DNA of 57,059 bases from Nitrosomonas sp. Nm34 (GTDB lineage Bacteria; Pseudomonadota; Gammaproteobacteria; Burkholderiales; Nitrosomonadaceae): contig NZ_FORD01000021.1 in NCBI RefSeq assembly GCF_900113925.1, positions 1-57,059 on the forward strand, in the 5' to 3' direction. Made by a program: the position numbers and the translations under genes. Under the pieces are notes generated by a model. It was not told where the DNA came from, ran no database searches, and saw nothing but the letters and a program-made list of their open reading frames with translations. Below, in pieces: positions 35,734 to 56,826 of the stretch; position 1 is the first letter of the stretch, and each line of letters starts with the position of its first letter.

Positions 35734-36753
35734 ATGAATATTCTTGTAACAGGTGGTGCTGGCTATATTGGTAGCCACACTATCATAGAGCTGCTTAACA
35801 ATAAACACGATGTCATTATCATTGATAATCTATTAAATAGTAGTAAAGTAGCGATAAATCGAATCGAGAAAATTGTTGGAAAAAAACTTGCATTTTACGA
35901 AAAAGACGTCCGTAATAAGCAAGCACTTGAAGAAATATTTTCAAAGCATCAAATTGACGGTGTTATTCATTTTGCTGGTCTTAAAGCGGTGGGCGAGTCG
36001 GTGAGAGTGCCACTCAAGTATTACAATAATAACCTTATTTCCACAATCTCATTATTAGAGGTTATGGAATCTCATGAGGTCAGGCAATTGGTTTTCAGCT
36101 CATCAGCCACCGTTTATGGTGACCCAGTAATCGTTCCGATCAAAGAATCTGCCACACTCCCCGCTAAAGTTACTAACCCATATGGTCAAACAAAGCTTAT
36201 TATTGAGACTATGCTCATGGATCTTGCAATAACCAATAATAATTGGCAAATTACTGCACTGCGCTATTTTAATCCAATAGGTGCGCACGAGTCTGGAACT
36301 ATCGGTGAAGATCCAAGCGATATACCTAATAACCTTATGCCCTATGTCAGTCAGGTTGCAGTCGGGAAACTCAAGGAGCTTTCTGTATTTGGTAATGACT
36401 ATTCTACCCCTGATGGTACAGGCGTACGTGACTATATTCATGTAACCGACCTTGCGAAAGCACACGTAGCAGCTCTAAATATACCTGCTACACCGAACGA
36501 GTATCGTGCAATCAATGTTGGTACAGGCAAAGGCACAAGCGTGCTGGAGCTTGTTAATGCATTCGAACATGCAAGTGGCGTAAAAATACCTTATAAAATT
36601 ACTGACCGACGGCCCGGTGATATCGCAGCATGTTATGCTGATCCAAGCCTAGCGCACTCTCTCTTAGGCTGGCAAGCACAAAAATCTCTTAAAGATGCCT
36701 GCGCAGATTCATGGCGCTGGCAAAGTGACAACCCTAATGGCTATAAAGGATAA
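35734..36753 (+). CDS. galE: UDP-glucose/UDP-GlcNAc 4-epimerase (GalE-type), likely Pel precursor supply
   Basis: GalE-type enzymes invert C4 of UDP-hexoses with bound NAD. The 339 residues start ILVTGGAGYIGSHTI (NAD site) and carry the catalytic Ser in FSSSATVYGD and the Tyr/Lys pair in NPYGQTKLIIE. The gatekeeper position that selects for N-acetyl sugars reads AACYADP with Cys300, like human GALE, whereas E. coli has Tyr there. This predicts conversion of UDP-GlcNAc to UDP-GalNAc as well as UDP-Glc to UDP-Gal. It stands beside the pel genes, and Pel contains GalNAc-derived units, so the likely job is precursor supply. It is convergent with pelB. The family is certain; the substrate is inference. 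Confidence 0.93.
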   Translation: MNILVTGGAGYIGSHTIIELLNNKHDVIIIDNLLNSSKVAINRIEKIVGKKLAFYEKDVRNKQALEEIFSKHQIDGVIHFAGLKAVGESVRVPLKYYNNNLISTISLLEVMESHEVRQLVFSSSATVYGDPVIVPIKESATLPAKVTNPYGQTKLIIETMLMDLAITNNNWQITALRYFNPIGAHESGTIGEDPSDIPNNLMPYVSQVAVGKLKELSVFGNDYSTPDGTGVRDYIHVTDLAKAHVAALNIPATPNEYRAINVGTGKGTSVLELVNAFEHASGVKIPYKITDRRPGDIAACYADPSLAHSLLGWQAQKSLKDACADSWRWQSDNPNGYKG

Positions 36754-36951
36754 TGTTATAAAGCTATGCTATCGAATTGATAGATAATTGTCTTGTTTTA
36801 AATATTTAAAATATCCTATTTATTTGGAATAATTCCTTTATCAGAACATTGTCAAGCTTACAAAATGGATTAAGCAGATCAGAAATTTTATAGAAAAAAC
36901 TGGGAATTGAATGAAGAGCCGGTCCAATTTTTAAGTCAAGTTCACCAAGGC

Positions 36952-39900
36952 TTAGAAGCGAATAGAGTATTGAAGGCCAACTCCCTTAAAAGCTTGATCA
37001 GTCTTACCCCCTTGAATATTACTATAAAATGCTCCAACACTAAGTGTATCTCGGCCAAATAATGAAGTCCCCATAGCTAGCCGGCCGTTATACCCAAAAA
37101 CATCATTGGGCCATACCCATCCTGCCCAAGCATCTGCAAGAATAAAAGGTCGTCTCAATACACCTTGATCGGATCCTCCATAGCGAAAAGCCGTTCCTGC
37201 ACCCATCGTACCGAATTTTTGTGTGATGAGTGTTTCCACATTCGCTACAGATGCTCCTAATAACCCATTCAATTCAGAAGGGAGTATTCCTACTAAGTCA
37301 TTGCTTTCCCATGTACCTTGTAATCTAACTTGCCAATCTTGAATGCCCGTAAGTAGAGATTTTCCCAGAATTCCTTGCAACTTATAGCCTGTACCGAGAG
37401 TACCTCTTTCTCTCGTCAGATAACGATGACCATCAATATCCAAACTCATAAATGAGTTTGATGGTAATTGCGTTGTAACATTGAATAAAAGGATATCTTT
37501 TGCTCCAAGCGCTCGTAATGGCCCTGTTTCAAACGGTATTTCATTCACTCCAACACGCAAGCTTGTTTTCACTTTATTGGTTATATCTTTGTTGACTCTA
37601 GCTGCGCCATAAACTAGAGAGGCATCTTCTCTGAGATTGCCACCCAGATTGAACTGGAGCATTCCTTCTTTAAAAGGATGTTTATATTCTGTACTAAGAT
37701 CAACTTCAGTATCAGCAGGTAACCTGATGTTGGGATCTGTAGAATTCAAATACGTATTCTTCAGTTCCATGCCAAGTACCCCTTCTAATAGGGGAGTATT
37801 AAAACGCGCTCGACCTTCGATAAAATCTATAGCACCAAGACTTCTAAAATCAACATTGCCTATTATCTGCCTGCTTGATTTCACCGCCAATTCATCTCTG
37901 GTATGAAAAAGATATGATTGCAACACAGGTGATTGGTCTTTATTTTCCTCGAGAAGGTCATAAGTTAATGCTAAGGCCTCTTTATTTCTATCTAAACGTT
38001 TAAGCACTTCCATTTTGCTGATTTTCGTAAGCTTATCGCTTTCTTTTTCAAGAATATGCTCAGCAGCAGCAAGATTGTTTTCCGCCAAAGCTAAGATAAG
38101 ACGTTGCCAACTTGGTGTTTCTTGCCTGGCAATATGTTCTTGTAGCAGCCAATGCCGAGCAGCAGAATAATTCTTCTGAGACAAATATGCAGCAACAAGA
38201 AGCTCTTGAACAAGGGAATCATCGTATCCTTTTTCAAGAAATTTTTTCAAAATAGACACTTCAGCATTTGCGCCTTCCATTTTCTGCACTAAAGCTAAAT
38301 ATTCAGTACGTAAAATATCCTTAATCCTTGTGCCTGGTTCATTGTCAATTTTGTTAAAACGAGATCTTAAGTTAAACAAAACATGTTTCCGCAGGTGCCA
38401 GGCTTTGTCTGCATACCCAGCCTGGCTCAAGACATCTGCATAGGTAAGCTGCCACAGATAATCATCAGGGCTGATTTGTGACTTGCGCTCAAGCCAAGAC
38501 AAAGCTTTTTTGTGCTGACCAATTTTAGCTAAAGCTACTCCATAACTGCCCCATAACAATGGATTTTCCAACGCTTCTGATTGCCACCTTTTAAGGTAAG
38601 ATCTAAGTGATTTTCTGTCATTTTGCTCAATAAGACTCCATAAAATGCCTTCTTTGGCAACAACAGAAGCGGGATTAATTGTCAATGCTTGTTGATAGTG
38701 CTTTATAGCTATTTTGGGATTGTTCTCATGAATATCTAACTGAGCACGCAATAGCCAATACATTTCTGAATCCTGGAATTTCGATTCATTACTTATTGCT
38801 ATTTGTAAGAGTTGCTTCAGTTGAGCTGACAAACCGGCCTCATTAGCAATATCCATAGAAAGCAGTAGCCAGCGAGGTTCATTGAAACGATCATAGGCTT
38901 CTTCACCAAGTGCAATAGCTTCTTCTGCTTTACCTGTATCTCGTAATCTTTGAATTAATCGTTCTGCAACAAGTGTATTAGCTTTTTTCGTTTTCCAAAG
39001 AATGTTATAAGCTGAAAATGAATCCTCAGGTCGTTCTAACGCCCAGGAAAGCTCGCCAAAAATCTGCCAGTAATAAGAATCTTTATCTGATGCATTATCT
39101 TGATTTGATAACAATAGCGAAAATGCCTTCTCAGATTGGCCATTCTTCCACAATAATTTAGCTTGATGGGCCACAGCATCTGATAGACGATTGAATAGTG
39201 ATCCAATAGTTTGCCACGTTGCTATGGCCTCGCCTATTTGTCCCGCATTTTCTTGTGCTTTAGCCAATGCTTCCCATACCTGGATATTTTCCGGATAACG
39301 CTTTAAATAGGACTTCAAGAAATTAATTTGGTCAGATATATTGCCTGCCTCATTAAAAGCAAACAATAAATTTTCTATTTCTTCATCGGTTAGTTCGCGC
39401 ATACTTGCTCGTTGCTCTAGCATTTCTATGGTGATATTGAAAAAATAGAGCGCTTTTGAAAGATCAATTGAATTGATCATTGCTGCATCATCTTGTCTAT
39501 TTCTAGCTAACCATAACCAGGCTTTTAATGCTAACCCCGGTTTATCCGCCCATTCTGCAATACGAGCTAGACTTTCATAAGCTTCATCATCATCTGGATC
39601 AATTTCTGTTAACCGCTGAGCTAAGTCCAGAGCTGGCTGAATTTCTCCAACGGCAAGAGCACGATCCATTTGTTTTTTAATCTGCTCTGGATCGTCAGGG
39701 TCTAATGCCAAACGCAAGATCCCCAATTCATAGGCATTTTGGGGATTCTTGTTAGCCATATAAAGAGTGATTATTTCATCAAGAAGTGCTGGGTCTTTTG
39801 GGAACTTCTGCTGATAGGTGCGAAAATATTCCGCAGCCAGGTTGCTATCACCAACTGCTCGTAATGCTTGAAGCGCTAGAAGCGCAAATTTTTTGGCTTC

Positions 39901-40545
39901 GACTATATCTTCCGATAATTCATAGCATTTATGATATGCTTCTGCTACTTTATAATGTAAGCCAGATGCGAGATACCATCTCGCTGACTCATTTAATTTC
40001 TCAATTCTTTCGGTAGGATTGAGAATCATGGTGGACCATTGGTCATACAAATTTGCAGCAATAACTGGCTGATTAAGCTCCAGGCTAAGCTTAATAACTT
40101 TAGAAATTAAAGTTACTGGGATCGGATTTTTACTAATATCAGTGATAATGTTTTGTAGTTTAGTTAGCTCTGTTTTCCGATTTGGGTCTTCTGCCACTAA
40201 TGAGAAATATTTCCTTAAATCAATTTCTAGCATTAAAAGTTTGGCTTCTAACGCTATAGGACTATTTTCTCCTTTTAATGATTCTAACTCTAAGTGAGCC
40301 TTATCGTCTTCTCCTAAATTAATATAGTGGCGGGCAAGTTCAAGACGTAGACCAGCGTTATCAGGATTGATATTCAAAAGAAGCTTTAAATATTGTACTG
40401 AAATACTGTCGGGTTTGACTAATTGCAGAAATTCTTTTAATCGCTCCTCTTTATAAACATAAAAGAAAAGCGAGAAAATAATAGCTAATGTGATGGTAAA
40501 TATAACTATCGCTCTTTTAGAATTATCTGGCAATTTTTGATTCAT
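36952..40545 (-). CDS. pelB: Pel exporter PelB: TPR scaffold and outer-membrane beta-barrel
   Basis: PelB is the outer-membrane porin of the Pel system with a periplasmic TPR scaffold that guides PelA and the polymer. The 1197 residues have one N-terminal hydrophobic segment (AIVIFTITLAIIFSLFFYVY, about 12-31), then many TPR-like repeats to about residue 830 (LARHYINLGEDDKAHLELES, ALTINPASVVAKEGILW and others). From about 880 to the end is a predicted beta-barrel (alternating strands with GTRYxL-like repeats, ending GVGLQYSIRF with a C-terminal Phe). It lies on the strand opposite pelC-pelG and is preceded by a 66-residue ORF with which it overlaps by four bases (ATGA). Confidence 0.9.
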   Translation of the reverse strand: MNQKLPDNSKRAIVIFTITLAIIFSLFFYVYKEERLKEFLQLVKPDSISVQYLKLLLNINPDNAGLRLELARHYINLGEDDKAHLELESLKGENSPIALEAKLLMLEIDLRKYFSLVAEDPNRKTELTKLQNIITDISKNPIPVTLISKVIKLSLELNQPVIAANLYDQWSTMILNPTERIEKLNESARWYLASGLHYKVAEAYHKCYELSEDIVEAKKFALLALQALRAVGDSNLAAEYFRTYQQKFPKDPALLDEIITLYMANKNPQNAYELGILRLALDPDDPEQIKKQMDRALAVGEIQPALDLAQRLTEIDPDDDEAYESLARIAEWADKPGLALKAWLWLARNRQDDAAMINSIDLSKALYFFNITIEMLEQRASMRELTDEEIENLLFAFNEAGNISDQINFLKSYLKRYPENIQVWEALAKAQENAGQIGEAIATWQTIGSLFNRLSDAVAHQAKLLWKNGQSEKAFSLLLSNQDNASDKDSYYWQIFGELSWALERPEDSFSAYNILWKTKKANTLVAERLIQRLRDTGKAEEAIALGEEAYDRFNEPRWLLLSMDIANEAGLSAQLKQLLQIAISNESKFQDSEMYWLLRAQLDIHENNPKIAIKHYQQALTINPASVVAKEGILWSLIEQNDRKSLRSYLKRWQSEALENPLLWGSYGVALAKIGQHKKALSWLERKSQISPDDYLWQLTYADVLSQAGYADKAWHLRKHVLFNLRSRFNKIDNEPGTRIKDILRTEYLALVQKMEGANAEVSILKKFLEKGYDDSLVQELLVAAYLSQKNYSAARHWLLQEHIARQETPSWQRLILALAENNLAAAEHILEKESDKLTKISKMEVLKRLDRNKEALALTYDLLEENKDQSPVLQSYLFHTRDELAVKSSRQIIGNVDFRSLGAIDFIEGRARFNTPLLEGVLGMELKNTYLNSTDPNIRLPADTEVDLSTEYKHPFKEGMLQFNLGGNLREDASLVYGAARVNKDITNKVKTSLRVGVNEIPFETGPLRALGAKDILLFNVTTQLPSNSFMSLDIDGHRYLTRERGTLGTGYKLQGILGKSLLTGIQDWQVRLQGTWESNDLVGILPSELNGLLGASVANVETLITQKFGTMGAGTAFRYGGSDQGVLRRPFILADAWAGWVWPNDVFGYNGRLAMGTSLFGRDTLSVGAFYSNIQGGKTDQAFKGVGLQYSIRF

Positions 40546-41896: not shown

Positions 41897-42460
41897 ATGT
41901 TGATTGGCAGCAAAAAAATTCTACGATTTGCTCATCTAAAATTTAGATTTTTCTTTTTGATTATATCGCTTAATTTGTTAATAGCATGTTCGGTAATCGA
42001 TATACAAAAAAGTGTTCCACTTTCTTCTTCTGAACGTTGGTTAATTTTACCTTTTCAAAATTATTCGCAGACACCACGCGCAGGTGAACAAGTTGAAGAA
42101 ATACTGTCTACTTTGCTTAGAATTCGAGGTATCCCAAATATAGAAATGTATCAACTAAATGATGATGATAAGAATGACTGGGCCGAATTTAATGACCGCA
42201 AACGCCAGGAAAAGGCCGTGTCACTTGCGACCAAAGAGAATGTTTCTTATGCCGTTACAGGTAGCGTTGATGAATGGCAATATAAGCTTGGTGTTGGCAG
42301 TGAACCAGTGGTTGGTCTGACCATCAGAATTATAGAGCTTTCTTCTGGCAAAGTTATTTGGTCTGCAAGTGGCGCGCGATCTGGGTGGAGTACGGAATCA
42401 CTAAGCGGCACTGCACAAAAATTAATCAAGCATTTGATCTCCGACCTTAGCATTACTTGA
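41897..42460 (+). CDS. pelC: Pel lipoprotein PelC
   Basis: PelC is an outer-membrane lipoprotein that forms a dodecameric funnel under PelB, steering the positively charged polymer to the pore. The 187 residues have a signal peptide with lipobox LIAC, so the mature protein starts at Cys31. The body shows SERWLILPFQNYSQTPRAGE, VEEILSTLLRIRGIPNI and AVTGSVDEWQYKLG, with GLTIRIIELSSGKVIWSASG near the end, in agreement with the PelC fold. A strong ribosome binding site (AAGGAG) precedes the ATG. It stands alone, with 879 bases between it and pelD. Confidence 0.88.
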   Translation: MLIGSKKILRFAHLKFRFFFLIISLNLLIACSVIDIQKSVPLSSSERWLILPFQNYSQTPRAGEQVEEILSTLLRIRGIPNIEMYQLNDDDKNDWAEFNDRKRQEKAVSLATKENVSYAVTGSVDEWQYKLGVGSEPVVGLTIRIIELSSGKVIWSASGARSGWSTESLSGTAQKLIKHLISDLSIT

Positions 42461-43339: not shown

Positions 43340-44722
43340 TTGAATAAGTCGATACTACCAGTAAAAGGAGAAATAACTAAATGGATAGAGTCCCTTATTA
43401 TTACGATATTACTTCCTGTAATCGGCTATGCCATTAATTCTTTAGATCCTTTTTTTGTAAATTATCATTTTCCCTGGTTGATTCTAGCTCCTTTATTAAT
43501 CGCTCTTCGACATGGGCTTGCTTATGGGATAGTAGCTACTACAGTGCTTGTAGGGATAGTTACGATGGGCTTTTTATTTGATTGGCAAGAGGTTCCTTTT
43601 TTTCCAAAAGAAATGATAGTTGGTTTATTGCTGGTCACAATAATTTCAGCTGAATTTCATGAAAGTTGGATTCGTAAAATAAAATACTTAGAGAGCAAAT
43701 ATAATCATATTAACGCGAGAATGGATAAGTTTACTCGCGAATATCACCTTCTCAAAGGATCACATCGTCAGCTAGAGTTACATGTGGCAAGTCAGGCAAA
43801 AAGTTTACGTTCTTTCTTGCATGATTTAGAGCGACATATTTTATCTTTAGAGAAAAATGAAGGTGAACCTCTAAAGGGTATCGGTGCAAGTATTCTTAAA
43901 CTTTTTAGTGACTTTGCGAGTGTGCAAATAGCTGCAATATACGCGATAACAGATGATGAGCGAAAAGAAATTAATCCTGAGCCTGTGGCTTATTTAGGGC
44001 ATGCACCACCTTTATTAATTTCAGATCCCTTAGTAAAAGAAGCCCTAAAAACAGGGCTTGTTGCGAGTATTAAATTAGAAAATGAAAATGCGATGGATAC
44101 TCCTGAAACACTTGTCGCTATTCCTTTAATTGACGTTTATCAGAAAATCTGGGGATTGGTTGTTGTGAATGAGATGCCGCTATTTGCATTGCAGGAAAGT
44201 ACCATGGATTTATTTGCTGTACTAGGGGGAAGTATCGGTGATCTGGTAAAGCGGCGTGCAGAGGCCTATAGTTATATAGATGATAAAGGAAAAGATGTTG
44301 AACTTAAATTGCGACGTGTTTTAAATGAAATTAAACTTTTAAAGACATCTGCTATGTTGATTGGCGCAATTATCGACTCTGAAGAAGTGCAAAATAAATA
44401 TCTGACTAGATTTCAAGCTAATTTGCGAGGGGTCGATAAAATTTGGATTTTCAATGAAGAACAAAATTATAAAACTTATCTGATCCTACTGCCTTATACG
44501 GATGAAAATGGTGCTAATGAGTTCTTAAACCGTATTGGATTATCAGAATTATTAGCTAAAAAAGTTTGCAATGAGTCCAATACTAAAGACACTGGCTATC
44601 ATGACAGTGAAGTTAGTCTCAATATATGGAGCTTAAATAATAAAACTTCACTAAAAAAATTAGTATCAGAAATTTATCAATTTTATAAGAAAAGAACGGC
44701 TTATTTTGATATTCAAAGATAA
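43340..44722 (+). CDS. pelD: c-di-GMP receptor PelD
   Basis: PelD is an inner-membrane receptor; binding c-di-GMP switches on Pel synthesis. The 460 residues have four membrane segments (about 17-105), a coiled stretch (about 115-170), a GAF domain (about 180-310) and a degenerate GGDEF domain (about 325-460) without a GGDEF motif. The inhibitory-site motif RGVD (R363-D366) is present, followed by R398, the same 35-residue spacing as the ligand-binding arginines of P. aeruginosa PelD as I recall them (R367 and R402). The start is TTG; no ATG lies nearby in frame and the ribosome binding site is weak. It is followed by pelE after nine bases. Confidence 0.92.
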   Translation: MNKSILPVKGEITKWIESLIITILLPVIGYAINSLDPFFVNYHFPWLILAPLLIALRHGLAYGIVATTVLVGIVTMGFLFDWQEVPFFPKEMIVGLLLVTIISAEFHESWIRKIKYLESKYNHINARMDKFTREYHLLKGSHRQLELHVASQAKSLRSFLHDLERHILSLEKNEGEPLKGIGASILKLFSDFASVQIAAIYAITDDERKEINPEPVAYLGHAPPLLISDPLVKEALKTGLVASIKLENENAMDTPETLVAIPLIDVYQKIWGLVVVNEMPLFALQESTMDLFAVLGGSIGDLVKRRAEAYSYIDDKGKDVELKLRRVLNEIKLLKTSAMLIGAIIDSEEVQNKYLTRFQANLRGVDKIWIFNEEQNYKTYLILLPYTDENGANEFLNRIGLSELLAKKVCNESNTKDTGYHDSEVSLNIWSLNNKTSLKKLVSEIYQFYKKRTAYFDIQR

Positions 44723-44731: not shown

Positions 44732-45742
44732 ATGCGATTATTTCTAATTCTGTGTAATTCAATTCTACTTGTTCTAGCATTAGGATTAGAAATATACGGC
44801 TTTAAGTTAATTCTAAATGAATCTTTATCTGAACAAATTTTAATAACATCTCTCTTTCTTCATTTTATTGCGAGTATCATAGCTGCCTGTATTTTTCCAA
44901 CAATAATGGCATCTAATCGAAAACAACCTCAGTTGAAGATCAATATTTTCTTTTTTGTGGTTGTTTTTTATTTGCCGCTGTTAGGATTAGTAGGATTAAC
45001 CTTGGCAATACCATTCATCATTCGTCATTCTCCTAAATCCCAAAAAACCAATTTTGTTGTGAGCTTAAGTAAAATCAGGAATCTTCCTGATATACCGGCG
45101 CAGGCTATAGATGATAATTTTGCAAGCTTACATAGTTTGTATCGGTCCAGAAATCCTGATAAAAGACTTAAGGCGATATATGCTTCATTAAAAATAAAGG
45201 ATCAGGATGCCATTCCACTTTTGCGTATGGCACTGAGTGATCCAGTTGATGATATCAGGTTGCTTGCTTACGCTTTATTGGACAGAAAAGAGCATGGGAT
45301 CAGCGAACGAATTAAGCATTCGAAGCAAAAACTTGAAAAAATAGAAAACTCAAGAAATAAACGCTTGTATCGTCAGATTGCAAATGACTATTGGGAATTA
45401 GCAAATCTTGGTCTAACTCAAGGAGAAGCACGAAATTATGTGCTCAATATGGCCTGCAAATATATTGAACTGGGTCTTAAATATTACCCCCAAGATGTGG
45501 GATTATGCTTCCAGTATGCACAAATCTTGCTGAAGCTGGGAAATTTTGAGCGTGCATATGAACAATTTAAAAAAGCTGAGAGTCTGGGAATGGAGCATAA
45601 AAAGTTACTGATTTACTATGCAGAGATTGCTTTTCATAGACATCAATACCACAAAGTAAAGCAATTAATGGCAGAGATAGATTATCCAGCAGCTTATCCT
45701 CAATTAACATCGGTAGTACAATTTTGGCAGAAAAGAAACTAA
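44732..45742 (+). CDS. pelE: Pel synthesis-complex protein PelE
   Basis: PelE is an inner-membrane protein with a cytoplasmic TPR part that binds PelF and joins the PelD-PelG complex. The 336 residues have three hydrophobic segments (near 3-25, 35-57 and 70-94: IFFFVVVFYLPLLGLVGLTL) and a helical repeat region (YIELGLKYYPQDVGLCFQYA, LLKLGNFERAYEQFKKAESL). The position between pelD and pelF, and the length, fit PelE. Its end overlaps the pelF start by 19 bases. Confidence 0.85.
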   Translation: MRLFLILCNSILLVLALGLEIYGFKLILNESLSEQILITSLFLHFIASIIAACIFPTIMASNRKQPQLKINIFFFVVVFYLPLLGLVGLTLAIPFIIRHSPKSQKTNFVVSLSKIRNLPDIPAQAIDDNFASLHSLYRSRNPDKRLKAIYASLKIKDQDAIPLLRMALSDPVDDIRLLAYALLDRKEHGISERIKHSKQKLEKIENSRNKRLYRQIANDYWELANLGLTQGEARNYVLNMACKYIELGLKYYPQDVGLCFQYAQILLKLGNFERAYEQFKKAESLGMEHKKLLIYYAEIAFHRHQYHKVKQLMAEIDYPAAYPQLTSVVQFWQKRN

Positions 45743-47253: not shown

Positions 47254-48635
47254 TGGCAGGCATTGGGTTCAGATTACGTGAACTGATGAGGGCAGATACT
47301 CTATCTGGAGTACTGTTAGCGTATAGTTTTGCCGGAATTATTGGTTCTGGCCCATGGGTATTATCGATCGTTGGAATACTATTAATTGGTTTCATCAGCA
47401 CAGATAGCTCCTCTGTCCCTTATTTTGTAGGACAGTTCCAGATATCTGTAACTTATCTGATGGCGATATCTTTAATTCTGACTGGTCCATTACAGTTAAT
47501 CATCACGCGTTTTATTGCTGACAGGGTATATGAAAAGCATGAGGAACTAGTTCTGCCAAACCTGATTGGTGCCATATGTCTTGTAATCACTGTAATCGGA
47601 ACACTTGCAAGCTTGTGTTTAATTTACTTCTTTGCTGGTTCTGTATTGTATCGCTTATTAATGTTAAGTGGTTTGATAATTCTTTCTACTATCTGGATAG
47701 TAGTGATCATTTTATCGGGACTCAAGGCATATCGTGAAATTTTGTTAGCATTTCTGTTAGGTTATGGGATAACGGTATGGGCTTCTAAAGAATTGGGTAA
47801 GTTTGGACTGGAAGGCTTGCTTTCTGGGTTTGTTGTAGGACAAGGCATCTTATTATTTATGCTTATGGTTGTAGTTTTTAACTCCTATTCTAGTAATAAA
47901 CTGATTGCTTTTGATTTTTTGCGACGAAACCAGATATTTCCAAGCTTGGCAATTACTGGCTTACTTTATAACGTAGCTATTTGGGCTGATAAGTTTATTT
48001 TCTGGTTCAATCCTCAAACAAGTACTTCGATCATTTTTCCTTTAAGAGGATCGGAGCTTTATGATCTTCCAATATTTCTTGCTTATTTATCAATCATACC
48101 CGGGATGGCCGTATTTTTATTGCGAATAGAAACAGATTTTGTAGAAAAATATACAAAGTTTTATGGTGCTATTAATGGCGGTGCTTCCTTAAGGCTTATT
48201 TTAGAAATCTATGAAGAAATGGTTGCAACCATTCGAAGAGGATTTTTCGAAATCATTAAAGTGCAGGGAATGACTATCGTTATCCTGTTGGCTTTAGGAG
48301 ATAAATTACTAATATGGGTAGGGATATCACCTTTTTATAAAGTATTGTTAAATATTGATTTGATTGCGGTCGGAATACAAGTATTACTGCTGGCCGTTCT
48401 CAATTTATTGTTTTATTTTGATTATCGTAAAGATGCACTCTATCTCTGTTTTTTATTTCTAGCCTCAAATATTATATTGACGTTTCTGAGCCAATATCTG
48501 GGCCCTGTATTTTATGGTTATGGATTTGCCTTATCCGTTGCGTTAACAACAGTAGTTGGAATGGTCATCGTCTCAAAAAGACTTAACCTGTTAGTGTATG
48601 AGACATTTATGCTACATTATAAATCTGGAGATTAA
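47253..48635 (+). CDS. pelG: Pel transporter PelG
   Basis: PelG is a polytopic inner-membrane protein of the oligosaccharide flippase-like superfamily, believed to form the conduit for the growing polymer with PelD, PelE and PelF. The 460 residues begin GIGFRLRELMRADTLSGVLL and contain about twelve hydrophobic segments. FSFAGIIGSGPWVLSI-like YSFAGIIGSGPWVLSIVGIL near residue 30 is typical of PelG. It is translated by overlap with pelF. The partial pelA copy starts 90 bases later. Confidence 0.93.
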   Translation: MAGIGFRLRELMRADTLSGVLLAYSFAGIIGSGPWVLSIVGILLIGFISTDSSSVPYFVGQFQISVTYLMAISLILTGPLQLIITRFIADRVYEKHEELVLPNLIGAICLVITVIGTLASLCLIYFFAGSVLYRLLMLSGLIILSTIWIVVIILSGLKAYREILLAFLLGYGITVWASKELGKFGLEGLLSGFVVGQGILLFMLMVVVFNSYSSNKLIAFDFLRRNQIFPSLAITGLLYNVAIWADKFIFWFNPQTSTSIIFPLRGSELYDLPIFLAYLSIIPGMAVFLLRIETDFVEKYTKFYGAINGGASLRLILEIYEEMVATIRRGFFEIIKVQGMTIVILLALGDKLLIWVGISPFYKVLLNIDLIAVGIQVLLLAVLNLLFYFDYRKDALYLCFLFLASNIILTFLSQYLGPVFYGYGFALSVALTTVVGMVIVSKRLNLLVYETFMLHYKSGD

Positions 48636-48660
48636 AAAATTAATTATAAATACCATTAAA

Positions 48661-50541
48661 AGGTAAGTTTTTCGATTTTGCTGAAGGTCATCAGCTTAAT
48701 GCTTATTTCGTGGGAAAGAGAAAAAATGAAATTAATCTTCTTGAACTATCGAGCAGTTGTATTACTTAATCAAGCATGGTTTTATTGAGCATCTGCTTGC
48801 CCCTACAGGTAAACCAGAGTATCGCATTTTTCTATGGTCGGCCTGTTCCGGTGAATTTACTTTCACATTATAAGCAAGTGGTGGTGGAGCCAGATAATAT
48901 GGATAATCTGGATGATCTCCATGCTAAAGGAACAAACGTATTTGCCTATATAAGTATAGGAGAAATCCATCCGACACGCTCTTGGTATTCAGAAATTCCG
49001 CAATCCTGGATTCTGGGAAGTAATGAAAAATGGGGGAGTCGTATTATTGACTTAACCCAACAAGGATGGCATGACTATCTGATTAATAAATATTTAAGTA
49101 AGCTGTGGAAAGAAGGATATCGCGGCTTTTTTCTCGATACAATGGATAGCTATCAAAGTGCTGTCCATGATGCTGATGGTCGAGTGCTTCAGGAAAAAGC
49201 ATTGGCAAGCCTCATTAGCCGTATTCATCAACATTTCCCAGGGGTTAAACTTATTTTTAACCGTGGATTTGAGGTTTTACCGGAAGTGGGTCGATATGCT
49301 GTCGCGCTGGCTGCAGAATCACTATTCGAAGGCTGGGACCCAGCTAAACAAGAATATACCGAAGTTAAAGAAGCAGATCGTCACTGGTTGCTGGAGAAGC
49401 TCAGGCAGATACGAGATCAATATGGATTACAGATAATTGTTATCGATTATGTTGACCCAAAGCAGAGAGAATTGGCGCGCAAGACTGCTAAACGAATATC
49501 TTACTTGGGTTTTACACCTTGGGTGGCCACTCCAAGACTCGATATTCTTGGTGTCGGATTATCGGAAATTTTTCCCCGCACCATCATAAAATCGGAAATT
49601 AAAAATTAATTTAACCCATCTAAGAGGCAAGTTTCTCGGTTTTGCTGAAGGTAGTTGGCTTCGTGCTTATCTCATGGAAAAGAGGAAAATATGAAATTAA
49701 TCTTCTTGAACTATCGAGCAGTTGTACTCCTTATTCATAGCATAATTTTATTAAGTATCTGCTTGCCCCTGCATGCAAACCAGAGTATCGCATTTTTCTA
49801 TGGTCGGCCTGTTCCGGTAAATTTACTTTCACATTATAAGCAAGTGGTGGTGGAGCCAGATAATATGGATAATCTGGATGATCTCCATGCTAAAGGAACA
49901 AACGTATTTGCCTATATAAGTATAGGAGAAATCCATCCGACACGCTCTTGGTATTCAGAAATTCCGCAATCCTGGATTCTGGGAAGTAATGAAAAATGGG
50001 GGAGTCGTATTATTGACTTAACCCAACAAGGATGGCATGACTATCTGATTAATAAATATTTAAGTAAGCTGTGGAAAGAAGGATATCGCGGCTTTTTTCT
50101 CGATACAATGGATAGCTATCAAAGTGCTGTCCATGATGCTGATGGTCGAGTGCTTCAGGAAAAAGCATTGGCAAGCCTCATTAGCCGTATTCATCAACAT
50201 TTCCCAGGGGTTAAACTTATTTTTAACCGTGGATTTGAGGTTTTACCGGAAGTGGGTCGATATGCTGTCGCGTTGGCTGCAGAATCACTATTTGAAGGTT
50301 GGGATCCAGCTAAACAAGATTATACCGAGGTTAAAGAAGCAGATCGTCATTGGTTGTTGGATAAGCTAAGGCAGACACGAGATCAATATGGATTACAGAT
50401 AATTGTTATCGATTATGTTGATCCAAAGCAGAGAGAATTGGCGCGCAAGACTGCTAAACGAATATCTGACTTGGGTTTTACCCCTTGGGTGGCCACTCCA
50501 AGACTTGATATTCTTGGTGTCGGATTGTCGGAAATATTTTC
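48661..50541 (+). repeat. Tandem duplication of the pelA 5' segment
   Basis: Two copies, 48661-49575 and 49625-50541, cover the pelA upstream region, signal peptide and hydrolase domain. They are offset by 965-966 bases. A core of 453 bases (48854-49306 and 49820-50272) is identical, whereas the flanks carry scattered differences, about fifteen in the last 270 bases and more in the untranslated leader. The uneven pattern suggests recent gene conversion. Homology stops within the sequence TCGGAAAT at the end of both copies. Confidence 0.9.
48726..49609 (+). pseudogene. Truncated upstream copy of pelA (hydrolase domain only)
   Basis: The ATG at 48726 gives MKLIFLNYRAVVLLNQAWFY and stops at 48786-48788. 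One base is missing compared with the intact copy, so the frame is lost inside the signal peptide. The downstream frame (from ATG 48776) then matches the PelA hydrolase domain for about 260 residues, nearly identical to the full copy, with D and E of FLDTMDS and AAESLFEGWD kept. It ends with 16 unrelated residues (FPRTIIKSEIKN at the end). If read from 48776 it would lack a normal signal peptide, and there is no ribosome binding site. I treat it as broken, but a restored or re-initiated product cannot be excluded. Confidence 0.8.
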
Positions 50542-52471
50542 CAGACGAATTTTAGCGCTTTATGATGGGCAAGAGTATCCAGAAGGATTGCAGCAAACTG
50601 ATGTGCATAAATTACTTGCCATGCCACTAGAATATATGGGTTATACAATTGATTATTTAGATGTAAACAGTGGATTACCCACTCAATCACTGATAGGACA
50701 ATATGCTGGGATCGTCACCTGGTTCAACAACGATAATTTAAGAGGGCCAATAAATTATAGAGATTGGCTATTAAGCCAAATAGATTCTGGCATAAAGATT
50801 GCTATTCTGGGTAATCTAGGTTTTAAAGCTAATCATACTTTTTTGCAGCATTTTCAGGTCAAATTAAGTCAGTCAGCAATAAAAGAGCCGCTCAAAATTG
50901 AACGAAGCGATCAAATTATTGGTTATGAAGTGAAACCTCAGCCAAAAACACGCGGGTTTACCATCTGGCAAGCTTCAGGAAATATTGATACACATCTAAG
51001 TTTGATAGATCAAAATAAACAATCTTGGGTCGCTGTATTTACTGGACAGTGGGGCGGAGTTGCCTTCCATCCTTATGTAATTGAGACTGGCTATGAGGGG
51101 CGTCAGCGGTGGATTATCGACCCATTTAAATTTTTAACCAAGGCTCTCGACCTACCAGAAATACCTGTTCCTGATGTCACCACTGAGAATGGCAGACGCT
51201 TATTACTGGTACAAATTGATGGTGACGGATCCAGCAATAAAGCAGAGATACCGGGAACCCCCTTAACAATAAAAGTGATTCAGGATTATTTCTTAAAAAA
51301 ATATAAATTGCCATCGACGGTTTCCATAATTGAAGGAGAAGCATCTAACGGTAACTCTACAGATAGGCTTACTGAAGTCGAGAAAGTGGCGCGAAACATT
51401 TTTGATCTAAATAATGTTGAGATCGCTAGCCATTCTTATAGTCATCCTTCAACATGGTTCCCAAAGAACAATATTGATGCGAGAGGTGATGATTTTAACT
51501 TTTCCATTCCTGATTATAAGTTTAGCTTGGAACGGGAAATCGCTGGATCGGTAAATTATATTAATAAAAAGCTGGCGTCTGAGAAAAAGCAAGTTCGTGT
51601 TTTTTTCTGGACTGGTGATGGGCTGGCAGATAAAGAAGCTTTAACTCTGACGCATTCGCTTGGATTGGAAAATATGAATGGCGGTGGTGCGACTATAAGC
51701 AAAGATGAAAAAACCATGACACGTGTGCCCCCTCTGGGCTATGCAATTGGCGATCAATTTCAGGTATATGCTCCCATTGCAAGTGAGCATGTTTTTACGA
51801 ATAGCTGGCAAGGCCCTTTTTATGGATTTAATCGAGTCATTGAAACTATGCAGCTTACTGATAGCCCGCTGCGCCTGAAACCATTGCATATCCATTATCA
51901 CTTTTATTCGGGAAGTAAGATAGCATCTATCAATGCGCTTCAATCCGTTTATGACTGGAGCATTAAACAGGAACCAAGAGCTATTTGGGTGAGTGAGTAT
52001 GCTCAGAAGGTAAATGAATTTCGGAGTATTACTCTGTCCCGCAGAATCGATGGTACGTGGGATATCAGAGGACTCAATAAATTACGTACTTTACGTCTGC
52101 CGGTATCGCTAGGATGGCCAGATTTGGAAAATTCTGAAGGAATAATAGGCGTTCGGGACATTAAGCAGGGACGGTATGTGCATCTTTTACCTAATCATGG
52201 GCAAGCTCTATTGAATACAACTTCTGAGCTTCCTTCTTCCACCTATCTTTTACATAGCAACGGAGAGATCGGAAAGTGGCAAAAGACTGCGGAAGGCGCT
52301 AATTTACATGTACATGCTCATATGCCGCTAGAGTTAGTCATAGCGTCTTTAAAACGTAAATGCTATATTAATTGGAGAGATGGAAAGCTTGATGGACAGC
52401 AACAGAACCGGAGCTGGAAATTTGTTTTCCCTATAACCAAGCTGGAGAATGCCTCGCTTGTTTGCCATTAA
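49691..52471 (+). CDS. pelA: Pel hydrolase/deacetylase PelA
   Basis: PelA is the periplasmic enzyme that cleaves and deacetylates the Pel polymer during export. I start it at the ATG at 49691 (GAGGAAAAT ahead), giving 926 residues with signal peptide cleaved near LHA-NQ (28-30). Residues 30-285 form the GH114-like (GH166) hydrolase with FLDTMDS (D138) and AAESLFEGWD (E198). About 290-490 is the middle domain. The deacetylase lies at about 500-790, with LLLVQIDGDGSS (D510/D512) and EIASHSYSHPSTW (H581, H585) as metal ligands and LHIHYHFYSGSK later. The C-terminal part is beta-rich. All key residues are present. Confidence 0.94.
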   Translation: MKLIFLNYRAVVLLIHSIILLSICLPLHANQSIAFFYGRPVPVNLLSHYKQVVVEPDNMDNLDDLHAKGTNVFAYISIGEIHPTRSWYSEIPQSWILGSNEKWGSRIIDLTQQGWHDYLINKYLSKLWKEGYRGFFLDTMDSYQSAVHDADGRVLQEKALASLISRIHQHFPGVKLIFNRGFEVLPEVGRYAVALAAESLFEGWDPAKQDYTEVKEADRHWLLDKLRQTRDQYGLQIIVIDYVDPKQRELARKTAKRISDLGFTPWVATPRLDILGVGLSEIFSRRILALYDGQEYPEGLQQTDVHKLLAMPLEYMGYTIDYLDVNSGLPTQSLIGQYAGIVTWFNNDNLRGPINYRDWLLSQIDSGIKIAILGNLGFKANHTFLQHFQVKLSQSAIKEPLKIERSDQIIGYEVKPQPKTRGFTIWQASGNIDTHLSLIDQNKQSWVAVFTGQWGGVAFHPYVIETGYEGRQRWIIDPFKFLTKALDLPEIPVPDVTTENGRRLLLVQIDGDGSSNKAEIPGTPLTIKVIQDYFLKKYKLPSTVSIIEGEASNGNSTDRLTEVEKVARNIFDLNNVEIASHSYSHPSTWFPKNNIDARGDDFNFSIPDYKFSLEREIAGSVNYINKKLASEKKQVRVFFWTGDGLADKEALTLTHSLGLENMNGGGATISKDEKTMTRVPPLGYAIGDQFQVYAPIASEHVFTNSWQGPFYGFNRVIETMQLTDSPLRLKPLHIHYHFYSGSKIASINALQSVYDWSIKQEPRAIWVSEYAQKVNEFRSITLSRRIDGTWDIRGLNKLRTLRLPVSLGWPDLENSEGIIGVRDIKQGRYVHLLPNHGQALLNTTSELPSSTYLLHSNGEIGKWQKTAEGANLHVHAHMPLELVIASLKRKCYINWRDGKLDGQQQNRSWKFVFPITKLENASLVCH

Positions 52472-53376: not shown

Positions 53377-53440
53377 TTCGAAGTGTAACTTCTTAAGGCT
53401 GATTTGAGTTTTGAATAAGATTCTGTCGAAGAATTTTACA
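53377..53440. promoter_or_regulatory. Opposed pair of regulatory boxes
   Basis: TTCGAAGTGTAACTTCTT (53377-53394) is the reverse-complement form of the box seen further right at 54017. GTCGAAGAATTTTACA (53425-53440) is the same box in forward orientation. No sigma-54 site follows at a suitable distance. They are probably protein-binding sites, or remains of an older promoter copy. Confidence 0.4.
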
Positions 53441-53783
53441 TTTTGATTAGTCGGTATATTTAACAAATCAATATTTTTAATTTTATAGCATCATTTCTGC
53501 ATTTATTTTCAATTTGGCTTTAGTGAGTGTGGGTATTCTTATTCGCTGCTCGACCGGTCAGTTCATCCTGCTCAACTTGGTTGCTCGCATTATGAGCATG
53601 CCCCTATTACAATATCATTTACACAAAGCATAAGACGCATCTGCTGCTTATACCGATGCATTAAATTTTGATTTTTTGTGCTTTCTTTTTACCTTGTTAC
53701 TTCAAACTAACTTGGTGTCCAGCGAGCATCTTTTTGTACCAGATCGATAATATAATTTTCTTTCTTAAGCATGATAAATATAT

Positions 53784-53878
53784 GTCGAATAATTTTACAT
53801 TCCAACCCGGTATTATGTTTGTATTCATTTATAACATTATGATTATTCATTAACATTATAACTTGGCATGAATTCTGC
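53784..53878 (+). promoter_or_regulatory. Sigma-54-type promoter with upstream box, first copy
   Basis: TGGCATGAATTCTGC (53864-53878) has GG and GC twelve bases apart, the -24/-12 spacing of sigma-54 promoters. Eighty bases upstream is GTCGAATAATTTTACA (53784 on) followed by CCAACCCGG. The layout is the same as in the second copy at 54017-54121, from which it differs by scattered substitutions. No gene follows it directly before that second copy. It may serve the deacetylase gene as a second start point, or be a leftover from duplication. Confidence 0.5.
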
Positions 53879-54016
53879 GTTATATTAAGTGATGTTTATG
53901 CCTTTGTGATTTTTGGAGAGGATAAAAAATAATAAAAACTAGATAGATTATAAAAACTTCATAAAATGTTTATGTGAACTGAATTGTAAGTGAGAGAAGT
54001 CTACTTACAGAATTTT

Positions 54017-54121
54017 GTCGAAGAATTTTACACTTCGAACCGGCGCTATGTTTTTCAATATTTCCCTTTGTTTGTAACCTCATGATTATTGATTGATTCT
54101 ATAATATGGCATGAATCATGC
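54017..54121 (+). promoter_or_regulatory. Sigma-54-type promoter with upstream box, second copy
   Basis: TGGCATGAATCATGC (54107-54121) has the GG-N10-GC pattern of sigma-54 promoters. Ninety bases upstream is GTCGAAGAATTTTACA with CTTCGAACCGG. Inside it, TCGAAG and CTTCGA form a perfect inverted repeat around nine bases, suitable for a dimeric enhancer-binding protein. The promoter lies 130 bases before the ATG of the deacetylase gene. The activator is unknown; a PrsR-like regulator, which controls surface genes in related bacteria, is one candidate. Confidence 0.6.
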
Positions 54122-54250: not shown

Positions 54251-56377
54251 ATGAAAAAGAACTATGAAAAAGGAATTAATCTGCTTGTCTCAGTAGTAAT
54301 GTGGTTAGCATTATTCATGGTACCGCCTGCCTTTGCCGATAATGCTGTCAATTTGAAGGTATTGGTCATTTCAACAGGAGACGAAACCCAGGATCTGGGG
54401 TTCAGCTACATCAAGCCTGTTCTTGATGAAATAGGTGTGCCTTATGACGTATTGAATGCTAGCACACAGGATTTAACTGCCGATATGCTTGCTTCTTTGA
54501 ATGGCGTAGCTTGCAGCTCCCTGGATGAGGGTTGTGTGGGTAGCTACAACGGCATTATCCTGACGATCTCCGACTTGACTCCCAACTTTACGCCGGCAGA
54601 GTGGGACATTCTGCACAATTACGAAAAAGACTTTAAGGTCCGTGAAGCCGTCTTATCGGGTTGGCCGGCTACCTACTCTGACCCCAATGCGCCGTTCGGC
54701 ATTTACCTGGATTACGGTCTGGTGTTTTCATCTAGTGGAGCGAGCTATATTGCGCAGTGGGCAATGCCTGCCACCTACCAAAAAGAAATATTTGAATCAG
54801 TAAATCAGGCAAATTTATTGCCGATTACTGATTTTGCCTTCGCCGCCGCCCCGCGAAATGATACTGTGGGTCCACGTGACGGCACTATCCCGAGTGTTAT
54901 GCCACTGCTGCAAACTACCAATGGAGAAGCGCTGGTATCGATCGTTCAGTACCTGATGCCCAACCAGACAGCACCGGTGCGCGAGGTGATGATCTCGACC
55001 ATCGCCAATGCCTCATTTCTCATTCATTCAAAAGTACTGGCTTACGAGTTTATCAACTGGGCAACGCAAGGGGTGTTCGTAGGAGCACGCCGCGTTTATA
55101 TGGCCGCCCATTTGGATGATTTATTCCTTGGGGATGAGCTGTGGGATTCCAGCCTCAAGGCGTCTAATCCGTTGAACACCTATCGCTTGAATAGCGGCGA
55201 TATTAGTAACCTTGTGAGCAAGCAGGCTGATTTTCGGGTTGACCATCCAACGGCTGGCGCTTTCAAGCTGGATTTCCCATTCAATGGATCCGAGGCCGTG
55301 GTTGATCCGACAGCAGCGACACTGGTTGCAAACTTATCAGAAGATTTGGTGGCGGCAGTGGTCGCCAACAAAGACGCGTTCCGTTACATCAACCACACTT
55401 TTACGCATGCAGACATGGATACTCCGCCCGTACCGGCGAATGCCCCATGTGATTATGAAACTTTTACTACTGTGGCACCTATCGAGGCAGAAATTACCAA
55501 GAACCGGACGGTGTGGGGACTTTTAGCTCTTCCTGAGCAAGCTGAAAACGACCGGATTCTGCTAACTGGCAACCACGCTGGCTTAAAAGATCGCAAGTGC
55601 ACGGATGATCCTTTGCTGCATCCTGAATTGGCCAATGTTCAGGATGACGATGTGGCGTTTGATCGGGGTGGCGCCAATCCACTGTTGCTACAAGCTGCTG
55701 CTAATGTAGAAGTGCAATATCTGGCATCCGACTCATCGCAGCGAGCACAGAACGTTGAGCAGTACATTACTCAATACGATGATGGCAAGCCGACGGATCG
55801 CATTATGCTGCCGCGCTGGCCAACCAATGTGTTCGTGAATGTCATCAACCCGGATCAATTGGTTGATGAATATAATTATATTTTTCACGATCGGTTTGTC
55901 AATGCCGGCCAGGATCCCTGCACCATACCCGGGGCGATCTGCACTCCTCGGAATTATATAGAAATTCTCGCTGCTGAAGCTGACAACGCGGTACGCCATA
56001 TGCTGAGCTTTAATAAATGGCCTCATTTTTTCCATCAAACAAATGCAGCCAATTATGCATACGGCAATACGCTGATATTTGACTGGTTAAACGCTGTCTT
56101 CACAGCCTACGAGCAATTATCTAATTTACCGGTCTTGAATTTGCCATACTGGCAAATTGGCGATAAGACAAAAAATAAGCTTGACGCTAAGACTGCAGTT
56201 ATTCAAGCAAAGTGGGATCGAGCTACGAATCAAGTCACTTTATCGGCAGACAAAGCGGTGAATCTAGAGGTTACGGGGATTGCCGGTGGGGATTTATATG
56301 GTGGTCAATTTATCCAGGCAGTTGATGTAACCACGACACCAGCAGTGTTCATAGTAGATCGTGCGCTGACGCAGTAA
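54251..56377 (+). CDS. Secreted Agd3-like polysaccharide deacetylase (CE18-type)
   Basis: I start at the ATG at 54251, with GAGGAG seven bases upstream, giving 708 residues; a GTG eleven codons earlier is less likely. The signal peptide ends AFA-DN near residue 29. The N-terminal 270 residues are probably a carbohydrate-binding and flavodoxin-like part (LKVLVISTGDETQ). The catalytic domain shows YMAAHLDDLFLGDELWD (HLDD at 287-290), INHTFTHADMD (HTFTH at 382-386, a metal-binding HxxxH), TGNHAGL (439-445) and PRWPTNVFVN. This motif series resembles Agd3, the fungal deacetylase of galactosaminogalactan. Recognition is from motifs and order, not from a search. It lies 1.8 kb after pelA with sigma-54-type control and probably deacetylates GalNAc units in Pel. 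Confidence 0.72.
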   Translation: MKKNYEKGINLLVSVVMWLALFMVPPAFADNAVNLKVLVISTGDETQDLGFSYIKPVLDEIGVPYDVLNASTQDLTADMLASLNGVACSSLDEGCVGSYNGIILTISDLTPNFTPAEWDILHNYEKDFKVREAVLSGWPATYSDPNAPFGIYLDYGLVFSSSGASYIAQWAMPATYQKEIFESVNQANLLPITDFAFAAAPRNDTVGPRDGTIPSVMPLLQTTNGEALVSIVQYLMPNQTAPVREVMISTIANASFLIHSKVLAYEFINWATQGVFVGARRVYMAAHLDDLFLGDELWDSSLKASNPLNTYRLNSGDISNLVSKQADFRVDHPTAGAFKLDFPFNGSEAVVDPTAATLVANLSEDLVAAVVANKDAFRYINHTFTHADMDTPPVPANAPCDYETFTTVAPIEAEITKNRTVWGLLALPEQAENDRILLTGNHAGLKDRKCTDDPLLHPELANVQDDDVAFDRGGANPLLLQAAANVEVQYLASDSSQRAQNVEQYITQYDDGKPTDRIMLPRWPTNVFVNVINPDQLVDEYNYIFHDRFVNAGQDPCTIPGAICTPRNYIEILAAEADNAVRHMLSFNKWPHFFHQTNAANYAYGNTLIFDWLNAVFTAYEQLSNLPVLNLPYWQIGDKTKNKLDAKTAVIQAKWDRATNQVTLSADKAVNLEVTGIAGGDLYGGQFIQAVDVTTTPAVFIVDRALTQ

Positions 56378-56433
56378 GCAATTGTTATTTAGGTGATTTT
56401 ATAGAAAAGGTTAACCATTAAGAGGATAATCAA

Positions 56434-56826
56434 ATGAAACACTATATCCACTCATTGAGAACTGTCCTTGCTTTGCTGATTGTTACTATAGCTATGATGA
56501 TAGGTACAGGGTTACCGATATCGGTCCATGCAGCCGAAGGACAAAAACCTGATAACCCGGGGAAATCTGAGGCGGCACCGGGACATAATAAAGATGAATC
56601 TGAAGAGCAAATAAATAAAATACGGAAAGAGGAAGAGCATAAATTAAAAAAAGGGAAGGGGATAAGAGAGGGGCGGGAACAGGGAGAGGAAAATTCTTTT
56701 TACCCTCAGCAGGCGAAATCACTGGCAGAGCGGCTTAGAGAATCGGCAGCTATTGTTGCTCAACAAGGCGGTAATGCTCAACCGCTTCTTGATGCGGCTG
56801 CTTATTTTGACAAGGAAGCTCAGTAA
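56434..56826 (+). CDS. Small secreted charged protein
   Basis: The 130 residues have an N-terminal signal peptide (VLALLIVTIAMMIGTGLPIS, cleavage likely after VHA near 33). The mature part is rich in Lys, Glu and Gly (KPDNPGKSEAAPGHNK, then EEHKLKKGKGIREGREQ), then a helical end with SLAERLRESAAIVAQQ. I recognise no domain. It lies 56 bases after the deacetylase gene with a GAGG ribosome binding site, so the two are probably co-transcribed. A small matrix-associated or polymer-binding protein is possible but unproven. Confidence 0.7.
   Translation: MKHYIHSLRTVLALLIVTIAMMIGTGLPISVHAAEGQKPDNPGKSEAAPGHNKDESEEQINKIRKEEEHKLKKGKGIREGREQGEENSFYPQQAKSLAERLRESAAIVAQQGGNAQPLLDAAAYFDKEAQ

What the first reader, a model, noticed from the sequence alone, without database searches (positions are those of the whole stretch)
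35734..56826. Pel locus that mirrors the fungal galactosaminogalactan cluster
The locus combines a GalE-type epimerase, a GT4 polymerase (PelF), a GH114-like hydrolase domain (PelA) and an additional secreted Agd3-like deacetylase. Aspergillus makes the GalNAc-rich polymer galactosaminogalactan with an epimerase (Uge3), GT4-type transferases, a GH114 hydrolase (Ega3) and the deacetylase Agd3. A bacterial Pel cluster with both its own PelA deacetylase and an Agd3-like enzyme suggests a second, extracellular deacetylation step, perhaps giving a more cationic matrix. The resemblance is from motifs; the joint function is inference.
Basis: partly seen in the sequence, partly recalled or inferred. 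Interest (0 to 1): 0.8.

Follow-up and report, generated by a model that had tools for sequence, protein, structure and literature searches.

The report
Pel locus with swappable fungal-type deacetylase
In an ammonia-oxidising Nitrosomonas, the genes for the sticky biofilm sugar Pel sit beside a gene whose product is predicted to fold like the mould Aspergillus's Agd3 enzyme and likely removes acetyl groups from Pel; in two relatives the usual Pel deacetylase domain was not found while this gene remains, so it has likely taken over that job.

The parts
35734..36753 (+). galE, UDP-glucose/GlcNAc 4-epimerase (predicted UDP-GalNAc supply)
   Evidence: TIGR01179 437.6 bits, cut-off 262.3
36952..40545 (-). 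pelB, TPR plus outer-membrane beta-barrel export protein
   Evidence: PF24604 267.7 bits, cut-off 31; TPR repeats
41897..42460 (+). pelC-like lipoprotein
   Evidence: No Pfam hit above cut-off; assigned by position and by a conserved homologue at the same place in the pel loci of relatives
43340..44722 (+). pelD, predicted c-di-GMP receptor
   Evidence: PF16963 25.8 bits, just under its cut-off of 27; same position in relatives
44732..45742 (+). pelE
   Evidence: TPR/HEAT-like hits, all below cut-off; position and homologues
45724..47253 (+). pelF, GT4 polymerase
   Evidence: NF038011 689.1 bits, cut-off 100
47253..48635 (+). pelG, inner-membrane exporter
   Evidence: PF16933 489.3 bits, cut-off 29
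48776..49609 (+). hydrolase-only pelA copy (GH114 domain, 277 aa); its reading frame is shifted by one base relative to the pelA signal peptide, so export is doubtful
   Evidence: PF03537 79 bits; matches PelA 9CGY/5TCB; 94.4% DNA repeat; same arrangement in two other N. communis-type genomes (frame shift seen in one of them, Nm44); dN/dS 0.09-0.13 between strains
49655..52471 (+). pelA, full length: GH114 hydrolase plus CE21 deacetylase
   Evidence: 9CGY E 9.9e-198 over residues 43-937; motifs LDTMDS, AESL, IDGDG, SHSYSHP, HIHYHFY
53420..54121 (+). upstream region of agd3 with three copies of TGTCGAANAATTTTACA and two TGGCATGN5TGC sites (resembling sigma-54 promoters; consensus recalled)
54251..56377 (+). 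agd3-like CE18 deacetylase with Sec-type signal sequence (708 aa; the ORF can also start at 54218)
56434..56826 (+). small secreted partner protein (130 aa), no Pfam family over its cut-off
   Evidence: follows agd3 in 25 of 31 locus rows; fused to Agd3 in N. briensis

Best explanation
The window holds a Pel exopolysaccharide locus with two different predicted deacetylases, PelA (CE21) and an Agd3-type protein (CE18), which likely act on the same alpha-1,4-GalNAc polymer. Likely route (inferred from the families): GalE supplies UDP-GalNAc, PelF polymerises it, and PelD/E/G move the chain across the inner membrane. In the periplasm PelA trims and partly deacetylates it, and Agd3, delivered by its Sec signal and accompanied by the small partner protein, removes further acetyl groups before or during export through PelB. 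An Ega3-like GH114 that lies next to agd3 in relatives would cut deacetylated stretches. In two relatives PelA has only its hydrolase domain and no PelA deacetylase domain was found, so there Agd3 likely does the whole job: a non-orthologous replacement that rebuilds the Pel machine on the plan of the fungal galactosaminogalactan pathway. Shown: gene content, match of the predicted fold, catalytic residues, co-occurrence, linkage, and absence of the domain from two genomes as searched. Inferred: substrate, location, order of steps and the partner's role.
For: Fold. Catalytic residues D289, D290, H382, H386, R522, H595 line up with Agd3 D377, D378, H510, H514, R613, H668 (alignment; Agd3 numbering from PMC7229062); five of the six are identical in 102 of 102 aligned homologues, H386 in 60 of 102. 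Co-occurrence in the 125 family genomes searched: agd3 in 26 (E 1e-30), PelF in 29 (E 1e-60), all 26 inside the 29, Fisher p 7e-24, which ignores shared ancestry. Linkage: 11 of 11 genomes with a PelF 75-100% identical to the window's have an agd3 copy 3.6-12.1 kb from pelF (nearest copy). In Methylococcales MAGs L036 and L047 the order is agd3-small-pelB-C-D, all on one strand. Replacement: a PelA middle+CE query (E 1e-5) hits 27 of 125 genomes, which are the 29 PelF genomes minus G013 and G082; in those two the only match to full PelA is the hydrolase part, and agd3-small precedes pelC-G. In the same two, PelB is two ORFs (ORFs read for G082). Free GH114 beside agd3 in 8 of the 11 loci, Ega3-type for the C46 one.
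Against: In 15 genomes that have agd3 and only the other PelF type (49-51% identical), agd3 is near pelF in none (9 on different contigs, 6 at 308 kb-1.85 Mb), so linkage is not universal. Two of the three agd3 modules in this genome are on other contigs: C72 shows no pel genes in the 19.9 kb fetched; C46 is only inferred to abut this locus. About 1.75 kb with its own repeats separates pelA from agd3, so they are probably not one transcript. In 27 of 29 PelF genomes the PelA deacetylase is kept, and both Methylococcales genomes also have full-length PelA (56-57% identical, one with an in-frame TAG), so Agd3 is usually additional. The p-value ignores phylogeny. The Agd3 and PelA-hydrolase sequences of G013 and G082 are sisters, so CE21 loss is probably one event. 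Other CE4-type deacetylases in those two genomes were not searched for. No enzyme activity or polymer chemistry of these bacteria was tested or looked up.
Confidence: 0.7

Rival explanations
1. Agd3 is a purely extracellular, second-step matrix enzyme: PelA deacetylates Pel before export, and Agd3 then acts outside the cell on released polymer.
For: Sec-type signal sequence (by inspection); separate upstream region with its own repeats; further copies of the module elsewhere in the genome; fungal GAG is deacetylated by a secreted enzyme (PMC9030451, start of abstract in the listing).
Against: In G013 and G082 no PelA deacetylase domain was found, so Agd3 would have to act in time for export there, as PelA does in Pseudomonas (PMC12022489). 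Export across the outer membrane was not tested.
Confidence: 0.2
2. Agd3 modules act on other GalNAc polymers, for example those of neighbours or a second polysaccharide of the same cell, and sit near pel mainly by history.
For: agd3 not near pelF in 15 of 26 agd3 genomes, and a pel-free copy at C72 in this genome.
Against: Every one of the 26 agd3 genomes also has PelF, and none of the 96 genomes without PelF has agd3. The unlinked Nitrosospira-group copies in the tree form one clade nested within pel-linked ones.
Confidence: 0.1
3. Passive linkage: one inherited island whose parts need not work together.
For: The genomes share ancestry; in this genome and G011 the island lies next to glmU, which directly follows atpC in 10 of 12 same-genus loci without it there.
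Against: Gene order differs among the 11 loci (agd3 before pelC, between pelB and pelC, after pelA, after pelB) while agd3 stays; the same partnership occurs in Methylococcales; catalytic residues are conserved.
Confidence: 0.06

Closest known systems
Agd3 (CE18/CBM87), Aspergillus fumigatus galactosaminogalactan deacetylase, PDB 6NWZ
   Different: 16-21% identity in the structural alignments; bacterial, beside a pel locus with its own PelA deacetylase
Bacterial agd3 homologues near Pel-like genes (Bamford et al. 2020, PMC7229062)
   Same: Same idea: CE18 genes in bacterial operons with a glycosyltransferase, a membrane protein, often GH114 and, in Gram-negatives, genes like the outer-membrane Pel components (section 13 read)
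   Different: The main text has no word beginning 'Nitroso' and the passages seen do not speak of a lost PelA deacetylase; it names Burkholderia, Moritella and Stigmatella. Its supplementary species lists were not seen
Pseudomonas pelABCDEFG with PelA (GH + CE21, PDB 9CGY)
   Same: PelA at E 9.9e-198, PelB, PelF, PelG by models, PelC-E by position
   Different: Extra CE18 protein, extra hydrolase-only PelA copy, pelB on the opposite strand, pelA last; in two relatives no CE21 domain found
Gram-positive pelDEA(DA)FG with separate PelADA (CE26) and PelAH (PMC7112168, PMC13254593; passages)
   Same: Hydrolase and deacetylase as separate genes, as in JL21 and KLAP95
   Different: The deacetylase there is CE26, not CE18; the operon name includes no PelB or PelC
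Ega3, GH114 endo-alpha-1,4-galactosaminidase (PDB 6OJ1)
   Same: The free GH114 on contig C46 matches at E 8.8e-60 over 211 residues
   Different: Carries an N-terminal GH114-associated domain (PF14741); it is not in the window itself

Membership tests
CE18 / Agd3 family | Agd3_CE domain by curated profile | tested here: met
   PF25115 41.7 bits, cut-off 27.6
CE18 / Agd3 family | Three-domain Agd3 fold | tested here: met
CE18 / Agd3 family | Catalytic motifs CM1-CM4 (DD, HxxxH, R, H) | tested here: met
   D289, D290, H382, H386, R522, H595
CE18 / Agd3 family | CBM87 domain | tested here: inconclusive
   PF25116 21.8 bits, below cut-off 27.6; many homologues carry PF25116 in the precomputed lists; the structure match covers this region
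CE18 / Agd3 family | Metal-dependent deacetylation of alpha-1,4-GalNAc | not testable with these tools
   needs an assay
Gram-negative Pel locus | PelF, PelG, PelB, PelA | tested here: met
   NF038011, PF16933, PF24604, 9CGY
Gram-negative Pel locus | PelC, PelD, PelE | tested here: inconclusive
   PelD model 25.8 bits vs cut-off 27; no PelC or PelE hit over cut-off; position and conserved homologues support them
Fungal galactosaminogalactan-type cluster | Epimerase, GT4, Ega3 and Agd3 together | tested here: inconclusive
   galE, pelF, agd3 in the window; the Ega3-type GH114 is on contig C46, inferred to follow the window end from G069. In G011 all four are on one contig, its GH114 being a 66% homologue of the one tested
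Fungal galactosaminogalactan-type cluster | Sph3 (GH135, spherulin-4; recalled as a cluster member, also named in PMC7229062) | tested here: not met
   no such Pfam hit among the 11 locus proteins scanned; the rest of the genome was not searched

The most novel reading that the evidence does not exclude
In Nitrosomonas sp. JL21 and KLAP95 the Gram-negative Pel machine has been rebuilt on the fungal galactosaminogalactan plan: PelA has lost its CE21 deacetylase and kept only the hydrolase, PelB has split in two, and an Agd3-type CE18 enzyme with a dedicated small partner protein has become the sole Pel deacetylase, with an Ega3-type hydrolase beside it. The N. communis locus in the window, with both deacetylases and a spare hydrolase-only PelA, shows the state in which the two systems coexist.
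Probability: 0.5. Interest if true: 0.72.

Novelty: new variant of a known kind. Interest (0 to 1): 0.57.

Why it matters
[quoted passage not shown] Two genomes here keep the pel genes, show no PelA deacetylase domain, and keep agd3. That makes a direct test possible: whether a fungal-type CE18 enzyme can replace the Pel deacetylase. It supports the idea that Pel and galactosaminogalactan pathways share more than polymer chemistry, and it adds a small secreted partner protein, fused to Agd3 in one species, as a new lead on how CE18 enzymes work in Gram-negative envelopes. Ammonia oxidisers matter in wastewater biofilms (general knowledge), so their matrix chemistry is of practical interest.

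Tried and rejected
A first structure prediction with 15 close sequences gave pLDDT 42.6 and was discarded; a 102-sequence alignment gave 93.1. The idea that the agd3-pel neighbourhood is a one-off was rejected. The idea that unlinked Nitrosospira-group agd3 copies are an independent family was rejected by the tree: the 12 used (of 13 such loci; L041 was left out) form one clade, support 93, sister to a pel-linked copy at 96; other deep nodes are weak (47, 53). Common neighbours were sought by clustering 21 loci, 5 of them pel-linked: apart from agd3 and the small gene, no family occurs in more than 5 loci. The TGTCGAANAATTTTACA repeat was pursued as a shared pel/agd3 control element: in this genome 7 of 10 hits at up to 2 mismatches lie upstream of the three agd3 copies, with 5 hits for the reversed control pattern, and none lies upstream of pel genes in the window. 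It was found upstream of agd3 in 6 of 27 regions scanned at up to 3 mismatches, all N. communis-type or G011, two of the six being the same place (L019, L030), and one N. communis copy (L021) lacks it. It is left as a lead. The hydrolase-only copy 48776-49609 was considered as the counterpart of the JL21/KLAP95 hydrolase; the tree groups it with the full pelA of its own species group (support 99), so it is a local duplication; copies 1 and 2 pair within a genome only at weak support (56, 57). An exact overlap of the ends of contigs C74 and C46 was tested and not found; adjacency is inferred from G069 only. Literature: the listings showed no paper on agd3 in Nitrosomonas (0 papers hold both words) or, by title and abstract start, on CE18 replacing PelA; this covers open-licence PMC papers only, and most listed papers were not opened. 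Rows that duplicate each other: L019 and L030; L020 and L025.
Full report
WHAT IS THERE. The window is contig C74 of a genome whose closest named protein relatives are Nitrosomonas communis (best named hit 92% identical). It contains galE, pelB (opposite strand), pelC-G, a hydrolase-only pelA copy, a full pelA, an agd3-like gene and a small gene. PelF, PelG, PelB and PelA pass curated models or match a solved structure strongly. PelC, PelD and PelE rest on position and on conserved homologues in relatives.

LINKAGE. A scan of public genomes with a 15-sequence alignment returned 27 loci; 10 of these carry pel genes within the fetched flanks, one more (actinobacterial L046) carries a distant PelF-like glycosyltransferase (28%) and GH114, and 16 show neither, apart from partial 30-38% PelF matches at the edge of three of them (L037, L038, L041). 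At least four of the 16 are cut short by contig ends (L021, L022, L029, L045). In the family-wide search 125 genomes were available: agd3 is in 26 (E 1e-30), PelF in 29 (E 1e-60). All 26 agd3 genomes have PelF; three PelF genomes (G130, G132, G138) lack agd3, G132 being only 80% complete. Fisher p is 7e-24, ignoring phylogeny. PelF comes in two types. The window's type (75-100% identical) is in 11 genomes, all with an agd3 copy on the same contig, 3.6 to 12.1 kb away. The other type (49-51%) is in 23 genomes of a second genus; in the 15 that have only this type plus agd3, agd3 is not near it. In a tree of 29 Agd3 sequences the 12 unlinked Nitrosospira-group copies form one clade (support 93), sister to a pel-linked copy (96), inside pel-linked sequences, so linkage looks ancestral and its loss secondary. 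Two Methylococcales MAGs have agd3-small-pelB-C-D (and E-F-G in L036) in one direction; in L047 agd3 comes in three tblastn pieces. Both genomes also have full-length PelA.

A NATURAL REPLACEMENT. A query with the PelA middle and deacetylase parts hits 27 of 125 genomes: the 29 PelF genomes minus G013 and G082. Their PelA is 281 and 287 aa, hydrolase only, and a search of both genomes, listed as 99% complete, with full PelA finds nothing but that hydrolase. Divergent PelA deacetylases at 27-31% identity were detected in other genomes by the same query, so a missed distant copy is possible but not likely. In both genomes agd3-small precedes pelC-D-E-F-G-pelAh in one direction, close to a contig end, and a GH114 homologous to the Ega3-type one follows in the other direction. 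In both, PelB matches as two open frames that break at the same point; in G082 the second frame starts with its own signal-like sequence. In Pseudomonas the PelA deacetylase and mixed domains are the predicted contact to PelB (PMC12022489, passages), so loss of the domain and a split PelB fit together; this is inference.

THE REST OF THE LOCUS. The free GH114 on contig C46 matches Aspergillus Ega3 (6OJ1) at E 8.8e-60. In G069, a one-contig genome, the order is pelA, agd3, small, GH114, second agd3, small, glmU, glmS, and the ends of our contigs C74 and C46 align there to abutting positions. Of 16 same-genus genomes searched for GlmU, two have agd3 beside it (this one and G011) and two rows were cut off or not fetched; in 10 of the other 12 atpC sits directly before glmU. 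One of the ten is G013, whose pel genes are elsewhere. Our window has the ATP synthase epsilon gene (by inspection) at 33622-34044. So in the N. communis lineage the locus appears to be an island between atpC and glmU, with GlmS, GlmU and GalE giving UDP-GalNAc precursors (inferred). Among the 11 genomes of this pel type, a free GH114 is near agd3 in 8 (G000 through C46, G069, G070, G011, G013, G082, G131, G139) and was not seen in the fetched stretches of G128, G129 and G135.

THE SMALL PARTNER. A secreted protein of roughly 100-140 aa follows agd3 in 25 of 31 locus rows (two places are counted twice, and L043 and L045 are cut inside agd3). A database search found 28 relatives; those with organism names are from Nitrosomonas and Nitrosospira. 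In Nitrosospira briensis the Agd3 protein is 822 aa and ends in this sequence without a signal peptide (P0084; an 820-aa ORF in L031), which suggests direct contact.

THE DUPLICATE HYDROLASE. Copy 48615-49575 repeats 49582-50542 at 94.4%. Three N. communis-type genomes share it; G011 does not. Its frame is open and between strains dN/dS is 0.09-0.13, but gene conversion with pelA could keep it so. A one-base difference puts the pelA-like signal start out of frame, so whether it is exported, or made, is unclear.

MECHANISM AND NOVELTY. The best reading is a Pel polymer deacetylated by enzymes of two families, of which the CE18 one can stand alone. Bamford et al. 2020 (section 13 and passages read) already described bacterial CE18 genes with GH114 and Pel-like genes, and NCBI already names close relatives 'Agd3-related carbohydrate deacetylase'. 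The pel operon duplication of Nitrosospira multiformis was already noted (PMC7112194, passages). What I did not find in the listings and passages seen is CE21 loss with CE18 retained, the split PelB with it, or the small partner.

Noticed in passing
window 53424, 53783, 54016: Three exact TGTCGAANAATTTTACA sites, each of the last two followed by a TGGCATGN5TGC site, upstream of agd3. In the whole genome all 4 exact hits and both 1-mismatch hits are upstream of agd3 copies. Looks like a dedicated activator site with sigma-54-like promoters (consensus recalled).
   Followed up: partly
G000 contigs C72:51452-53581, C46:22868-24994, C97:7560-7748: Two further agd3+small modules (Agd3 82-84% identical) and one fragment with three in-frame TAG in the same genome; N. 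communis Nm44 (G070) has 8 match rows, several cut at contig ends.
   Followed up: partly
window 56890-57059 and the first 106 bases of reversed C46: These end stretches did not align to the G069 stretch in which the flanks abut; the C46 end reads like a transposase C-terminus (by eye, recalled), so an insertion sequence probably broke the assembly.
   Followed up: partly
window 52488-52595: A ~110-base stretch after pelA recurs twice on contig C72 (9243 and 10386 of L005) at 81-82% identity; nature unknown.
   Followed up: no
alignment A2, column of window H386: The second histidine of the CE18 HxxxH metal motif is another residue in 42 of 102 aligned bacterial homologues (A 37, S 4, T 1), which may mean a different metal site there, or an alignment shift.
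   Followed up: no
L046 9881-21639: Actinobacterial cluster with Agd3 carrying an insert, epimerases, a PelF-like GT4, a membrane protein and GH114, close in content to the Gram-positive clusters described in PMC7229062.
   Followed up: no
G082:C28:94050-97765 and G013:C33:710-4425: PelB split in two ORFs at the same point in both genomes; in G082 it follows a glmS-like gene (by inspection).
   Followed up: partly
window 21752-34044: dnaA and gyrB and ATP synthase genes (by inspection) lie upstream, so the pel island is near the likely replication origin.
   Followed up: no
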